From assembly GCF_039691755.1 (NCBI RefSeq), contig NZ_CP137552.1, positions 1,488,001-1,552,000 of the forward strand: DNA of 64,000 bases. Direction: 5' to 3'. Each line of letters opens with the position of its first letter. Positions within the stretch are counted from its first letter, which is position 1. The stretch is from Halomonas sp. Bachu 37. GTDB taxonomy: Bacteria > Pseudomonadota > Gammaproteobacteria > Pseudomonadales > Halomonadaceae. This document shows positions 48,239-53,261 of the stretch, piece by piece. The notes below the pieces were generated by a model. The model searched no databases. It saw only the letters and a program-made list of their open reading frames with translations, and had not been told where the DNA came from. Made by a program: the position numbers and the translations under genes.

Positions 48239-50686
48239 TCATCGCGGTGATGAACTCGTCTCACCGGGGTCAACAAGCTGCCATCCCGAATCCGATTGCC
48301 ATTGAAACTCAAGACGTTGCCCAGCTTCGAACGAGTAGGCTCGATCACGCACGGCGAGCCTTAGCGTTTTTGTCCCTCCTTCAGGAACACAAAGCGTCAT
48401 TCTGTGTCCTTCGAGGGTTATCTCTACCCATCGTCCGTGATAGCGCAGGCGCAACTGTAGTCCAGGCAGCGGCTCGGGCAGACAAGGGTCCAGCCGCAGC
48501 AAACCATCGCGCAGCACCAGCCCCGTTTCACCGCGCTGAACCAGATCCACGGATCCCGCCATGGCTCCCAGGTGGATGCCCTCCCGGGTCGTTCCCCCCT
48601 GCACATCGGCGATATCGCTTTCAAGCGCTTCGTTGAGTAGCTGCAGTGACCTCGGCCGGTCCAGACGCGCCAATACCCAGGACTCCACAATGCGGCTCAA
48701 GGTCGAGCCGTGCGAGGTGCGCTGTCGATAATAATGGATGCTCTGCGAAATCAGCTCCGGATCGAACGGATAACCCAACTGATGAAAAAGATCGCCAAGC
48801 TCTTGGGCAGAGAAAAGGTAGAACAGCATGAGGACATCGGCTTGTTTCGAGGCCTTGTAGCGATTGACCGTGTCTCCTTCCGCCTCGAGCAGCCGATCCA
48901 GACGATGAATATCACCGTATTTTTCCTGATACCCTTTCCAATCGAACTCATCGAGCCGTTCGTAGCCTTCGAACTGACTGATCACACCATCGTGAAACGG
49001 AATGGAAAGCCGGCGGCTGATGCTATCCCAGGTACTGATTTCCTGTTCGCTAACGCTCAGGGTTTCGCAAAGCTCTCGACGCCGCTCGGTTCCGATGTGC
49101 TCCAGGGCCTCGCAGGCCCGCCGCAGCCCCCAGGAAACCATCACATTGGTGTAGGCATTGTTATCGACCCCGGGTTCGTCCGCCCATGGGTACTGGTCAT
49201 GGAACTCGTCGGGCCCCATGATTCGGCAGATATCGTAACGCTTGCGCTGGGCATTCCATTGAGCGCTACTGGCCCAGAAACGTGCGATTTCCACCAGCAA
49301 TTCCGCCCCGTAATAGGACAGGAATTCGATGTCCTCGGTGACCTCGTAGTAGCGCCAGACATTGTAGGCCACCGCGGCATTCACGTGTCGCTGCAGGTGA
49401 CTGTTGTCCGCCACCCAGCGACCCGACTTGGGGTTGAGATGCAGCATCTGGCTCTCTTCACGACCGTTACTGCCGCTTTGCCAGGGGTACATGGCGCCAC
49501 GATACCCCGCTTCGCGCGCCAGCCTCCGGGCTTCCCCCAGACGACGATAGCGGTAGCGCAGCAAGGCGCGGGTGATCTCGGGAATACGCAGGTTGAGAAA
49601 GGGAAAGATGAACAATTCGTCCCAGAAGATATGTCCGCGATAGGCCTCGCCATGCAGCCCACGCGCCGGCACCCCGACATCCAGATCGACGACGTGGGGC
49701 GAGACGGTTTGCAGCAGATGAAAGATATGCAACCGCAGGATCATCTGGGTGCGTCCACCGCCCTTGAGGATCAAGTCACAGCGATGCCAGAGATGGCGCC
49801 ACACCTGAGCATGACTCGCCAGCAAATCGGCAAACCGCCCCGCCTCGGCAAGTGTGTACATGGCCGCAAGCCCGGGCTCCGAAATGGCCCGGTCCCGGGA
49901 CGTCTGCAGCGCAACGACTTTCTCGATATGGATATCCCGGCCCTGGCTGACGTCGAAACTCAGCTCGTGGGCGATATAGCCGCGCTGCTGCTCCAGCCTG
50001 CGTTGGTCAGGCAACAGGCACCCAGCCTCGAACACTTGCGTGCGCGCCGCCTGGGCCACGCGAAGGTTAGATTGGCTGGTTTCGACCCTCAAGCGAATGC
50101 TGTCGTCATCGATCGCTTCGCTGCCCAAGGGCCGCAGATGGGTACTGGCCAGCTCGCGGTAACGGGCCACACCACTATTGATGACCCGCCCGTCGAGGGC
50201 CGAGCATACGGTGATTCGCCCCGACCAGTTCTCCGCTGTCAGCTGCCACTGGATGGCGGCAAGATGGGGATTCTGCATATGTACGAGACGCTGGCAGACG
50301 AGAGACGTCTCCCGGCCTTGGCGATCACGAAAGCGCATCTTCCGTTGCAGTACACCGTTTCTCAGGTCCAGCGCCTGGTGATAACCCAGAATCTCGACCG
50401 CCGCGAGATCGAACCACTCATCCTCACCTTCGTGACGAAATGACAGACATAGCCAATTCGGCATATTGACGAGATCTTCGTTCTCGATCTCGCGTCCGGC
50501 TATCTCTGTCTCGAGCCGATTATATCCCCCCGCGAGATAGGTTCCGGGGTAATGGATTTCATCGGCCTTGGCCTCTTCCGCCGCTCCTCGGGTGGCGAAA
50601 TAACCATTGCCCAAGGTACATAGAGCCTCGCGCAGCCCCTCCTCGGCATTGTCGAAATCCGTGTAATCGAGTGTCCAATCGCTCAT
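48239..50686 (-). CDS. Glycoside hydrolase family 65 protein (trehalose/maltose/kojibiose phosphorylase type)
   Basis: The protein has 815 residues. The start at 50686 overlaps the upstream HAD gene by four bases (ATGA). An N-terminal super-sandwich domain (LGNGYFATRGAAEEAK) is followed by the (alpha/alpha)6 barrel, with M490-G-P-D-E494-F-H holding the likely general acid, then GVDNNAYTN, and H659-G-S-T-L-S in the phosphate-binding position of phosphorylases. Known GH65 enzymes cleave alpha-linked disaccharides with phosphate and release beta-glucose 1-phosphate. The partner gene encodes a beta-phosphoglucomutase-like plus trehalose-phosphatase-like protein, which favours trehalose or a related sugar; the exact substrate is not set by sequence. 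Confidence 0.9.
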   Translation of the reverse strand: MSDWTLDYTDFDNAEEGLREALCTLGNGYFATRGAAEEAKADEIHYPGTYLAGGYNRLETEIAGREIENEDLVNMPNWLCLSFRHEGEDEWFDLAAVEILGYHQALDLRNGVLQRKMRFRDRQGRETSLVCQRLVHMQNPHLAAIQWQLTAENWSGRITVCSALDGRVINSGVARYRELASTHLRPLGSEAIDDDSIRLRVETSQSNLRVAQAARTQVFEAGCLLPDQRRLEQQRGYIAHELSFDVSQGRDIHIEKVVALQTSRDRAISEPGLAAMYTLAEAGRFADLLASHAQVWRHLWHRCDLILKGGGRTQMILRLHIFHLLQTVSPHVVDLDVGVPARGLHGEAYRGHIFWDELFIFPFLNLRIPEITRALLRYRYRRLGEARRLAREAGYRGAMYPWQSGSNGREESQMLHLNPKSGRWVADNSHLQRHVNAAVAYNVWRYYEVTEDIEFLSYYGAELLVEIARFWASSAQWNAQRKRYDICRIMGPDEFHDQYPWADEPGVDNNAYTNVMVSWGLRRACEALEHIGTERRRELCETLSVSEQEISTWDSISRRLSIPFHDGVISQFEGYERLDEFDWKGYQEKYGDIHRLDRLLEAEGDTVNRYKASKQADVLMLFYLFSAQELGDLFHQLGYPFDPELISQSIHYYRQRTSHGSTLSRIVESWVLARLDRPRSLQLLNEALESDIADVQGGTTREGIHLGAMAGSVDLVQRGETGLVLRDGLLRLDPCLPEPLPGLQLRLRYHGRWVEITLEGHRMTLCVPEGGTKTLRLAVRDRAYSFEAGQRLEFQWQSDSGWQLVDPGETSSSPR

Positions 50687-52254
50687 GTTGTCGCTCCATT
50701 GACGGTGCAGAGGCGGCACAGGAAACGGCCTACCGCCCTGGGATCTTCCAGCCGGTAGTGAGCGGCACTCGGCTGGGGTGAATCGGCCACCAGAAAGCCT
50801 ATCCCTTGTCCATTTCGCAAGAACTTGAACGCGTCTTCGTCCGTCTCGTCGTCGCCGAAGTAAAGCGGCAGGCTATCCTCGCCCTCGAGCTCAAGCGCTT
50901 CAAGCAGCCAACCCAAGGCCTTGCCTTTATCCCAGGGCAGCCGAGGCCTCAGTTCGAAGATCTTCTTGCCGCCGGTGCGCCGCAACATCGACTCCGAGGC
51001 TTCGATAACCTCATCGACTCCGTGATCTATGGTTTCCAAATCTTCAGCGGCCACGAGACGGTAGTGCACGGCGATGGCATAGCGCTTGCGCTCGATGAGT
51101 ATGCCGTCGATACCGGACAGCGCTTGCTGCAGTTCGGCTTCGGCGCGATCAAGCGCAGGCAGGAATTCCTCGGCCTGATCGAGTTGCAACTGCAGACCAT
51201 CGGGGCCGGCGATATCGAAGCCATGGCTGCCGGCATAGACAAGCGAATCGATGCCCACCAACCGCTCGACATCGGCGCGGTCACGACCGCTGATAATGGC
51301 AACAGTCATGCGTTCGGCGACCTTGAGTAGCATGCCGCGCATCTCATCGCTCAGCACCGCCAGTTCGGGCCTGTCGACGATCGGCGTCAAGGTGCCGTCA
51401 TAGTCGAGAAACACAACCGGGCGCTTACCCGCCAACCAGCCGGCGATCTCGTCATGACGCGCCAGCGCATCCGGCAGCGTCGATGCGGCACTCGTCAGCA
51501 GTTCATCTAGATCATCGACAACGATGTCTGCTCCGTGGGCCAGCAAGGCATCACGCTGGCCGGCACGGTCGACTCCGACCACCAGACCGAAATCGGCGGC
51601 ACGTGCCGCCTCGACTCCCGACAAGGCATCCTCGATCGCAAAGGTGCGGTTCGGCGGAACACCGAGCAGATGGGCCGCATGCAGGAAGGCATCCGGATTC
51701 GGTTTGCCCTTCAGCGGTAAACGATCGATGTCGTTGCCATCGACGCACACATCGAACAAATGGCCCAAGTCGGCCGCTTCGAGCACTGCAGAAGCATTCT
51801 TGCTCGACGATACCAGGGCGGTATTCACTCCTGCATCGCGCAGTCTCTGAACAAGGGCCACCGAACTATCGAACACCTCGACGCCGTCCTCGGCCAGGCG
51901 CTTGCCGAACAGTTCGTCCTTGAGGTTGCCCAGGCCACAGACCGTCTCCAGTCCCGGCGCATCCGTCGGGGTGCCATGATCAAGGGAGATGGAACGGGAG
52001 GCCAGAAAACTCTGCACGCCCTGGTAGCGAGGCTTGCCGTCGACAAAGCGTGGATAGTCGGATTCACAATCAAACGGCTGGAATTTCTCACCCGACGTTG
52101 CCGCACGACGCTGCAGGTAATCGTCAAACAGCTGCTTCCATGCGGCACAATGCACGCTGGCGGTTCGGGTCAGGACCCCATCGAGATCGAATATTCCCGC
52201 ACTGAAAGAAGCGAGATCAATCCCTTGCCGGATGCTGTCGGGTGTTTTCATCAT
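50683..52254 (-). CDS. Double-HAD protein: beta-phosphoglucomutase-like plus trehalose-6-phosphate phosphatase-like
   Basis: The protein has 523 residues; the ATG at 52254 has GGGA six bases upstream (a second ATG follows at once). The N-terminal HAD module (about 15-255) has F-D23-L-D25-G-V-L-T, VSSSKNA, KPNPDAFL and IEDALSG, the beta-phosphoglucomutase pattern. The C-terminal module (about 275-515) has F-L-D284-Y-D286-G-T-L-T-P, IISGRD, GSHGFD and FGDDETDEDAF, the OtsB pattern. It could isomerise beta-glucose 1-phosphate from the GH65 partner to glucose 6-phosphate and dephosphorylate trehalose 6-phosphate. Mycobacterial OtsB1 joins these two modules and a GH65 module in one chain in the same order. 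No otsA is in the window. Confidence 0.88.
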   Translation of the reverse strand: MMKTPDSIRQGIDLASFSAGIFDLDGVLTRTASVHCAAWKQLFDDYLQRRAATSGEKFQPFDCESDYPRFVDGKPRYQGVQSFLASRSISLDHGTPTDAPGLETVCGLGNLKDELFGKRLAEDGVEVFDSSVALVQRLRDAGVNTALVSSSKNASAVLEAADLGHLFDVCVDGNDIDRLPLKGKPNPDAFLHAAHLLGVPPNRTFAIEDALSGVEAARAADFGLVVGVDRAGQRDALLAHGADIVVDDLDELLTSAASTLPDALARHDEIAGWLAGKRPVVFLDYDGTLTPIVDRPELAVLSDEMRGMLLKVAERMTVAIISGRDRADVERLVGIDSLVYAGSHGFDIAGPDGLQLQLDQAEEFLPALDRAEAELQQALSGIDGILIERKRYAIAVHYRLVAAEDLETIDHGVDEVIEASESMLRRTGGKKIFELRPRLPWDKGKALGWLLEALELEGEDSLPLYFGDDETDEDAFKFLRNGQGIGFLVADSPQPSAAHYRLEDPRAVGRFLCRLCTVNGATT

Positions 52255-52345: not shown

Positions 52346-53215
52346 TCAGCGGGTGCTGGGTTGAGCCGCCTCGTCGTTTTCTTCGACGTTATCTTCTTCG
52401 TCGGATTGTGTATCGAATTCCTCTCGATAATCCTCGGGCTCGTCCCCCGGGTGTTCTTCACTCTCCCGCCCCCTGTCCTGGCGGAGACTATCGCGCTGCG
52501 CTTCAAGCTCGTCGTATTGCTCATCCAGGCGCTGCTGAGCCTCCTCGAAGCGCCGCTCGGTATCCTCGATCATCGCATCCACATCGAGATTTTCATCTTC
52601 AATGGCGGAACTTGTCGTACCGATACTTTCCGTCAGGTCAGCATCGCTGTCCCAGCGTTCGCCGATATCGTCGGGTATATCGAGAGATTCCAATGTCGCT
52701 GCTTCTCTTTCGACTTCTTCGAATTGAGCATCCAACTCACGCTGGGCCTCTTCGAAACGACGCTCGGTTTCGGCAATCATCTCGTCGACATCGGAACGGG
52801 TCGCCTCACCCGGCATCGCTCCGCCTTCTTCCAGCACATCGAGGGGCTCCTGCCCCAATGTCTCGTCTTCCGCCTCGGCTCCATTTTCATCCATCGACAT
52901 GGAATCAGTGGAGCTATCCGCCAGGCCATCATCTGCAGCGGTTTCATTGGTGGCGGTTTCAGTGCTCGCTGCAGTTTCCGTCTCTGCTTCCGTGGTGAAT
53001 TCAGTGTCTGACTCCGATTCCGGTGCCGAAGAAGCGACTTCGGAGGCTTGCGGATCATCGTCTGGCGTCTGGACCGGGGCATCGTCCTGGCTCGCTTCCT
53101 GCCCCGTCGCGGATGTGCCGTTACTCTCGGTTTCAACGCCGTCGTCGCTATCGCCACAGGCGCTCAGCAGCAGAGCCAGCGCCATGACGGTAGGCACCCA
53201 GAATCGTGTCGTCAT
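52346..53215 (-). CDS. Acidic lipoprotein with duplicated coiled-coil block, unknown function
   Basis: I do not recognise the family. The protein has 289 residues; the ATG at 53215 has GGAG six bases before it. Residues 1-20 are a lipoprotein signal with lipobox L-S-A-C20, followed by Gly-Asp. Residues 21-140 are disordered and rich in Glu, Asp, Ser and Thr. Two similar helical blocks follow, residues 143-177 and 212-246, each starting V-D-x-M-I and containing ETERRFEEAQ or DTERRFEEAQ, joined by a linker. The tail (247-289) is again very acidic and ends with QPSTR. Such acidity fits a halophile periplasm, and the heptads suggest a coiled coil or oligomer. It lies between the lipid kinase and HAD genes on the same strand. 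Confidence 0.8.
   Translation of the reverse strand: MTTRFWVPTVMALALLLSACGDSDDGVETESNGTSATGQEASQDDAPVQTPDDDPQASEVASSAPESESDTEFTTEAETETAASTETATNETAADDGLADSSTDSMSMDENGAEAEDETLGQEPLDVLEEGGAMPGEATRSDVDEMIAETERRFEEAQRELDAQFEEVEREAATLESLDIPDDIGERWDSDADLTESIGTTSSAIEDENLDVDAMIEDTERRFEEAQQRLDEQYDELEAQRDSLRQDRGRESEEHPGDEPEDYREEFDTQSDEEDNVEENDEAAQPSTR
52478..52789 (-). repeat. Two copies of a 35-codon repeat inside the acidic lipoprotein gene
   Basis: Copy 1 is 52685-52789 and copy 2 is 52478-52582, separated by 34 codons. The encoded blocks share VDxMI, TERRFEEAQ, LD-Q, and a Glu-rich end. The duplication is diverged at the DNA level, so it is not recent. Confidence 0.7.
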
Positions 53216-53261
53216 CAACTTCTCCAATCGATAGGTTCATTCATGTTTACCTGCCGTCGAG

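What the first reader, a model, noticed from the sequence alone, without database searches (positions are those of the whole stretch)
48239..52254. Split counterpart of mycobacterial OtsB1: overlapping double-HAD and GH65 genes
Seen: a 523-residue protein with a beta-phosphoglucomutase-like module and an OtsB-like module overlaps by four bases a GH65 gene of 815 residues. Known: OtsB1 of Mycobacterium tuberculosis (Rv2006) is one chain of roughly 1,330 residues (from memory) with the same three modules in the same order, and its role is unclear because OtsB2 is the main trehalose-6-phosphate phosphatase there. Inference: the two products act as a complex or channel. GH65 phosphorolysis would give beta-glucose 1-phosphate, the first HAD would make glucose 6-phosphate, and the second would dephosphorylate trehalose 6-phosphate or a similar sugar phosphate. 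In a salt-tolerant bacterium this could switch trehalose between osmolyte and carbon use. The absence of otsA nearby suggests an unusual substrate or a salvage role.
Basis: partly seen in the sequence, partly recalled or inferred. Interest (0 to 1): 0.75.

Follow-up and report, generated by a model that had tools for sequence, protein, structure and literature searches.

The report
Possible OtsA-free trehalose synthesis operon
Two overlapping bacterial genes encode three sugar-phosphate enzymes that together look able to turn glucose 6-phosphate into the stress sugar trehalose without the usual first enzyme OtsA; if an assay bears this out, it is a new way to make trehalose and offers a role for a puzzling tuberculosis protein.

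Summary
Observation confirmed: a 523-aa double-HAD gene overlaps by four bases an 815-aa GH65 gene. Relatives are common: 66 of 80 named loci hold all three modules, 10 of them in one open frame. The GH65 has the published fingerprint of trehalose-6-phosphate (T6P) phosphorylases, DQGQDE. In genome draws a T6P phosphatase gene adjoins 14 of 21 GH65 genes with DQGQDE or DQAQ/PDE and 0 of 41 others. The window's genome has no GT20 (otsA) and no trehalose PTS. My reading: the set works in the synthetic direction, 2 Glc6P -> trehalose + 2 Pi. Best support: genomes that I take for green sulfur bacteria pair a bPGM-GH65 chain with a nematode-type T6P phosphatase (19 of 19, versus 0 of 44 other genomes tested) and lack GT20 (14 of 14 tested); some relatives adjoin PEP synthase. 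Against: 36 of 50 genomes with relatives have GT20, this genome also has TreYZ and TreS, five GH65s with the fingerprint have no phosphatase beside them, and nothing has been assayed.

The parts
50683..52254 (-). Double-HAD gene, 523 aa: beta-phosphoglucomutase-like module (about residues 18-253) followed by OtsB-type trehalose-6-phosphate phosphatase module (about 276-516)
   Evidence: catalytic residues conserved in relatives
51499..52203 (-). beta-phosphoglucomutase-like module (residues 18-252): D23/D25 (nucleophile and acid/base by analogy), H35, K184, E208/D209
   Evidence: best solved relative of this part 8h5s, molecule named beta-phosphoglucomutase; D23 and D25 in 96 of 96, E208 in 94 of 96, D209 in 95 of 96 aligned domains
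50707..51429 (-). Trehalose-6-phosphate phosphatase module (residues 276-516): DxDGT at 284-288, SGR at 322-324, GDDxTDEDAF at 467-476
   Evidence: aligns to 5gvx, named trehalose-phosphate phosphatase, over residues 190-516
48239..50686 (-). GH65 gene, 815 aa, predicted trehalose-6-phosphate phosphorylase; catalytic acid E494; fingerprint D71 Q403 G405 Q413 D427 E603; phosphate site R350, S661, T662, H705
   Evidence: fingerprint definition from PMC8537180
50683..50686 (-). ATGA overlap of HAD stop and GH65 start (translational coupling inferred)

Best explanation
The operon encodes a three-step, nucleotide-sugar-free trehalose synthesis route. Step 1: the first HAD (beta-phosphoglucomutase) makes beta-glucose 1-phosphate from glucose 6-phosphate. 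Step 2: the GH65 enzyme, a T6P phosphorylase running in reverse, joins beta-glucose 1-phosphate to a second glucose 6-phosphate, giving T6P and phosphate. Step 3: the second HAD removes the phosphate irreversibly and pulls the two reversible steps forward. Net: 2 Glc6P -> trehalose + 2 Pi, in place of OtsA. Shown by computation: module identity, conserved catalytic residues, T6P fingerprint, no GT20, trehalose PTS or PF01204 trehalase match in the genome. Inferred: activities, direction, coupling of the steps.
For: T6P specificity: exact DQGQDE fingerprint, which PMC8537180 gives for a T6P phosphorylase confirmed by assay; the six residues are invariant in the 21 sequences of A1; best solved match 9lb6 by sequence and fold; tree puts it in one clade with 9lb6 and two GH65s of TreB/TreR operons, SH-aLRT 98. 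One intermediate: a T6P phosphatase of either kind adjoins 14 of 21 GH65 genes of T6P type in the genome draws (4 of 10 with exact DQGQDE, 10 of 11 with DQAQDE/DQAPDE) and 0 of 41 others (the Bacteroidota part was not a random draw). No other T6P source found: own genome no GT20, no trehalose PTS; 14 of 50 genomes with relatives lack GT20 and none of these 14 has a trehalose PTS above cut-off; 10 of these 14 loci hold all three modules; G120, a complete genome with all three, lacks both. Unrelated phosphatase: PF21141 in 19 of 19 genomes with a bPGM-GH65-sized chain (fingerprint read in 11 of them), on the same contig within 3 kb in 18, the other at a contig end; GT20 in 0 of 14 tested, trehalose PTS in 0 of 19. 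Gluconeogenic neighbours: PEP synthase adjoins the set in L055, L068, L075, L099. Contrast: 2 of 2 GH65s with the fingerprint beside a trehalose PTS have no phosphatase gene found (L104, L115). T6P phosphorylase gives high T6P yields in vitro (PMC13121652).
Against: 36 of 50 genomes tested with such GH65s also have GT20, so OtsA could feed T6P there; GT20 is an immediate neighbour in 4 of 177 genes scanned. Several GT20-less genomes are draft or metagenome assemblies of untold completeness, so a missing gene may be a gap. The window's own genome has TreZ, TreY, TreS and GlgE, so trehalose can be made otherwise. PfkB kinases (11 of 177) fit glycolysis as well as gluconeogenesis. For M. tuberculosis, only OtsB2 is credited with phosphatase activity and an otsB1 mutant has no obvious phenotype (PMC11046441). 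The bPGM step alone is unfavourable towards beta-glucose 1-phosphate (recalled). Five of 10 genes with exact DQGQDE in the draws, all with Q at position 350, have no phosphatase gene beside them. The green sulfur set is one clade, so one event. Active-site loops of the GH65 model have pLDDT under 50, so the model does not test the active site. No assay exists.
Confidence: 0.55

Rival explanations
1. T6P salvage or branch-point switch: T6P made by OtsA (or imported) is either phosphorolysed to glucose 6-phosphate plus beta-glucose 1-phosphate, which bPGM turns into glucose 6-phosphate, or dephosphorylated to trehalose. The set controls the T6P level and runs mainly in the catabolic direction.
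For: 36 of 50 genomes with relatives carry GT20; GT20 is a direct neighbour in 4 of 177 genes scanned; the T6P phosphorylase of Lactococcus lactis is described as part of trehalose use (PMC8950772, passages and reference title); PfkB kinases are frequent neighbours.
Against: The window's genome and 15 others tested have neither a GT20 match nor a trehalose PTS above cut-off, nor do 14 of 14 presumed green sulfur genomes tested for both; a phosphatase fused to or beside the phosphorylase serves no purpose in pure breakdown, and two GH65s beside a trehalose PTS lack it.
Confidence: 0.28
2. Different substrate: the GH65 and the OtsB-like phosphatase act on another alpha-glucosyl sugar phosphate, not T6P, for example a glucosyl compatible solute.
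For: No T6P source is visible in the genome; relatives with changed fingerprints exist (SRAPDR, HQGPDE, ARAPDR), two of them inside the T6P clade of the tree (L109, L123); several GH65 subgroups have no known substrate (PMC8537180).
Against: Exact six-position match to the T6P phosphorylase motif; TIGR00685 trehalose-phosphatase well above cut-off; a second family named after T6P phosphatases takes the same place in presumed green sulfur bacteria.
Confidence: 0.12
3. Co-location without joint function: three sugar-phosphate genes kept together by chance or by a shared regulator.
For: Nothing beyond the lack of an assay; the two immediate neighbours in the window (LysE-type exporter, lipoprotein-like gene without a Pfam match) suggest no link.
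Against: 66 of 80 named loci from many phyla, two of them archaeal, hold all three modules in fused and split forms; four-base overlap.
Confidence: 0.05

Closest known systems
OtsB1 of Mycobacterium tuberculosis (Rv2006)
   Different: Two genes here; the window's bPGM and phosphatase modules keep their catalytic residues. In an OtsB1-like chain on a Rhodococcus plasmid the bPGM module scores only 33 bits (L119)
T6P phosphorylase (GH65, EC 2.4.1.216; L. lactis TrePP, Caldithrix CaGP)
   Same: GH65 with fingerprint DQGQDE (CaGP: PMC8537180; window)
   Different: The Lactococcus enzyme is described in trehalose use; here an adjacent phosphatase and no trehalose PTS or GT20 match point to synthesis. 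The sequences of CaGP and TrePP were not in any call
OtsA-OtsB trehalose synthesis
   Same: Ends with a PF02358 T6P phosphatase
   Different: No GT20 match in the genome; the proposed route needs no UDP-glucose
Engineered coenzyme-free T6P synthesis (PMC13121652)
   Same: T6P phosphorylase used in the T6P-forming direction; its Fig. 1 legend also lists an earlier in vitro route with beta-PGM (passages)
   Different: That cascade is in vitro from maltose and polyphosphate and its authors call it new-to-nature; here a natural gene set would start from glucose 6-phosphate
Trehalose-phosphate phosphatase 5gvx (mycobacterial OtsB2, organism recalled)
   Same: Aligns to the window's HAD protein over residues 190-516, the end of the bPGM-like module and the whole phosphatase
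   Different: The alignment begins after the part that holds the bPGM nucleophile

Membership tests
GH65 T6P phosphorylase | GH65 domains and catalytic acid Glu | tested here: met
   PF03636, PF03632, PF03633 above cut-off; E494 aligned with the GPDE motif of 3wiq and 9lb6
GH65 T6P phosphorylase | Six-position fingerprint DQGQDE (CsKP 64, 392, 394, 402, 416, 585) | tested here: met
   (definition: PMC8537180 results)
GH65 T6P phosphorylase | Phosphate site (two Ser, His, Lys in solved GH65 phosphorylases) and no hydrolase general base | tested here: inconclusive
   S661 and H705 kept, second Ser is T662 and Lys is R350, the same as in 9lb6; the base position was not mapped by structure (feature from PMC8626586 passages)
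GH65 T6P phosphorylase | Clusters with enzymes of proven T6P activity | tested here: inconclusive
   38-row clade with 9lb6 and TreB-linked GH65s, SH-aLRT 98; but the PDB labels 9lb6 hydrolase and phosphatase, and the assayed CaGP and TrePP were not in the tree
GH65 T6P phosphorylase | Activity on T6P or in reverse | not testable with these tools
   needs an assay
beta-phosphoglucomutase | Family model and catalytic residues | tested here: inconclusive
   TIGR02009 above cut-off, TIGR01990 below; catalytic residues kept
T6P phosphatase (OtsB) | TIGR00685/PF02358 and HAD motifs | tested here: met
OtsB1 (three-module chain) | All modules in one chain | tested here: not met
   two genes with a four-base overlap
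OtsAB pathway | GT20 T6P synthase in the genome | tested here: not met
   no match; 6 of 14 control genomes ring
TrePP catabolic operon | Trehalose PTS (TreB) supplying T6P | tested here: not met
   no match in G000; 5 of 14 control genomes ring

The most novel reading that the evidence does not exclude
A natural nucleotide-sugar-free pathway of trehalose synthesis, 2 glucose 6-phosphate -> trehalose + 2 phosphate, built from beta-phosphoglucomutase, a T6P phosphorylase in reverse and a T6P phosphatase; spread over many bacterial phyla and archaea as fused or split genes, with a nematode-type phosphatase in green sulfur bacteria; OtsB1-type proteins would be its single-chain form.
Probability: 0.5. 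Interest if true: 0.85.

Novelty: new variant of a known kind. Interest (0 to 1): 0.68.

Why it matters
If true, it adds a trehalose route to the OtsAB, TreYZ and TreS routes named in a 2023 review (PMC10969515 passage) that needs no UDP- or ADP-glucose, lets otsA-less genomes be scored as possible trehalose makers, suggests how green sulfur bacteria could make it, and gives the unexplained OtsB1 type of protein a concrete reaction. It would also mean that GH65 relatives named 'alpha,alpha-trehalase' or 'trehalose/maltose hydrolase-like predicted phosphorylase', and the Chlorobium-type gene named 'trehalose 6-phosphate synthase', are misnamed. Every step can be tested with two purified proteins.

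Tried and rejected
Rejected: trehalose, maltose and kojibiose phosphorylase as the GH65 function (published motifs TRIGPP, KV[MF]NES and EEAPxx differ from DQGQDE). Rejected: simple anticorrelation with otsA; 36 of 50 genomes with relatives have GT20. Rejected: a PTS-fed catabolic operon. Led nowhere: neighbours in the window; promoter and terminator scan near the shuffle means; paper searches for Rv3401, for bPGM plus phosphatase, for Marinobacter plus otsA. That the route is not in print rests only in one open-access library and is weak. Recalled, from no call: the bPGM equilibrium, autotrophy of green sulfur bacteria, module order of Rv2006, the organisms of 5gvx, 4ofz and 5e0o.

Counts: the 80 named loci were the best by similarity, so they cannot test the link of fingerprint and phosphatase; that test uses the two genome draws. 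Pseudomonadota: 21 of 397 genomes have GH65 (23 places); 22 GH65 frames were read, 4 of T6P type and 18 others; one of the two places in G232 fell under my length filter. Bacteroidota: 135 of 296 genomes have GH65; 40 regions were read, 17 of T6P type and 23 others. T6P type here means DQGQDE (10 genes) or DQAQDE/DQAPDE (11 genes). 'Adjacent' means within 3 kb by my own profiles or by similarity to L156:1439-2764. In one search the 44 negative genomes were not each checked for lack of the bPGM-GH65 chain. Neighbour tallies show only the first 25 families of each batch, so those of one or two members are minima. In the tree L071 was labelled TPPset although its locus shows GH65 alone.
Full report
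Observation. The two genes are real and as described: double-HAD gene 52254..50683 and GH65 gene 50686..48239, minus strand, sharing ATGA. Domain calls are well above curated cut-offs, except the narrow bPGM model. The nearest named relatives are from Vreelandella and Halomonas (70-79% identity), so the window is from a Halomonadaceae-like genome (G000, 3.49 Mb, completeness 100). The set is patchy among kin: no GH65 match in the 10 other genomes of the same genus or family that were drawn and listed. GC is near the window mean (0.589 and 0.602 versus 0.598); third-position GC (0.68) is lower than in three housekeeping genes (0.74-0.78) but like a neighbour (0.66).

The three modules belong together. 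Organisms include archaea (L014, L059), Planctomycetota, Bacteroidota, Actinomycetota and Campylobacterota. Catalytic residues of both HAD modules are kept. In the two genome draws, a T6P phosphatase adjoins 14 of 21 GH65 genes of T6P type (own, L099, L100, L146 with PF02358-type modules; ten with PF21141) and 0 of 41 others. Of the remaining seven, one lies at a contig end, one is in a TreB operon, and five belong to a subgroup with Q at position 350; one of these, L150, has phosphoketolase next to it. bPGM accompanies GH65s of several other types too.

Where T6P comes from. The window's genome has no match to GT20, trehalose PTS or PF01204 trehalase, and a single PF02358 and a single GH65 gene. 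It does have GlgA, TreZ, MalQ, TreY, GlgX, GlgE, TreS and GlgB in one cluster, so trehalose would not depend on this operon alone. Of 50 of the 80 genomes, 36 have GT20 and 14 do not; none of these 14 has a trehalose PTS above cut-off, and 10 of the 14 loci hold all three modules. Completeness of these genomes was not told and several are metagenome bins. So otsA absence is not the rule, but in a sizeable minority T6P has no visible source except the GH65 run backwards.

The presumed green sulfur bacteria. A bPGM-GH65 chain with DQAQDE or DQAPDE appeared in 11 of the 40 Bacteroidota regions. In 10 of these 11 the gene just before it is of the PF18572/PF21141 type; the eleventh region ends at a contig end. 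L156:1439-2764 matches these two Pfam families, named for a T6P phosphatase, and not PF02358; its solved relatives are trehalose-phosphatases 4ofz and 5e0o, with the DxDGT and GDTxSDIPM stretches kept (that they are from a nematode is recalled). PF21141 is in 19 of 63 genomes tested: the 19 that have a GH65 frame of 1,056-1,097 aa, and 0 of the 44 others. It lies on the same contig within 3 kb in 18; in G635 both genes lie at contig ends. The fingerprint was read in 11 of the 19. GT20 is absent in 14 of 14 tested and the trehalose PTS in 19 of 19. Named relatives of the phosphatase are Chlorobium, Prosthecochloris and Pelodictyon; contig lengths tie G521 and G536 to Pelodictyon luteolum and Chlorobium sp. 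N1, and I infer the same group for the rest. These are autotrophs (recalled), for which sugar salvage makes little sense. A different phosphatase family beside the same bPGM-GH65 pair is the best evidence for the three-step unit, though it is one clade and its motif differs from the window's by one or two letters.

Direction. Four three-module loci adjoin a PEP synthase gene: L055 (gapA-ppsA-GH65-bPGM/TPP), L068, L075 (with glgB and glgC) and L099; L071 has gapA and ppsA one gene away from a GH65 alone. PEP synthase is gluconeogenic (established knowledge). G038, G044, G046 and G120, which hold L055, L068, L071 and L099, have no GT20 match. PfkB kinases, aldolase and phosphoglucose isomerase are other neighbours (11, at least 5 and at least 2 of 177 genes scanned, of 257 listed), compatible with either direction. 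PMC13121652 (abstract and passages) reports high T6P yields with a T6P phosphorylase; it gives an equilibrium constant of 760 once for the overall equation and once for the phosphorylase step, so the second use may be loose. Its authors call their cascade new-to-nature.

Verdict. T6P as the shared intermediate: about 0.85. Synthetic direction given that: about 0.65. The strongest contrary facts are the GT20 in 36 of 50 genomes, the other trehalose routes in this genome, the five fingerprint-bearing genes without a phosphatase, and the lack of phenotype and phosphatase activity reported for OtsB1 (PMC11046441 passage; in PMC6606615 passages the otsB1 mutant formed the studied persister-like state as wild type did).

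Noticed in passing
L156:1439-2764 and homologues in L149, L151, L153, L155, L157-L161: T6P phosphatase family PF18572/PF21141 in presumed green sulfur bacteria; database names of relatives are 'trehalose 6-phosphate synthase' or hypothetical, probably wrong.
   Followed up: yes
L117, L118, L147, L150, L152, L169, L170: Subgroup of DQGQDE GH65s, mostly fused to bPGM, with Q instead of R350 in the phosphate site and no phosphatase found; L118 sits with glucokinase, acetate kinase and phosphoketolase, L150 with phosphoketolase. Perhaps another substrate.
   Followed up: partly
window 50683-52254 versus PDB 5gvx: Trehalose-phosphate phosphatase 5gvx aligns to the double-HAD protein from residue 190 on, that is, including the end of the bPGM-like module; its first domain may be a decayed bPGM. 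In Rhodococcus L119 the bPGM module scores 33 bits only.
   Followed up: partly
G000:C1:2545000-2566000 (L091, L092): Cluster GlgA, TreZ, MalQ, TreY, GlgX, GlgE, TreS, GlgB in the window's genome.
   Followed up: partly
window 52346-53227, minus strand: Acidic 293-aa protein with a lipobox-like start (LLSAC) and two copies of an ERRFEEAQ stretch; no Pfam match.
   Followed up: no
L093:6164-8605: 813-aa GH13 protein related to sucrose phosphorylases (182 bits, under the cut-off of 334) in the window's genome, next to a DsbC-like gene.
   Followed up: no
L023, L029, L032, L035 (Pontibacter): A second bPGM gene upstream of bPGM-TPP and GH65.
   Followed up: no
L109, L121, L123: GH65s with altered fingerprints ARAPDR, HQGPDE, SRAPDR; L109 and L123 fall inside the T6P clade of the tree, L121 was not in it; L123 lies beside a gene annotated as ribokinase.
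   Followed up: no
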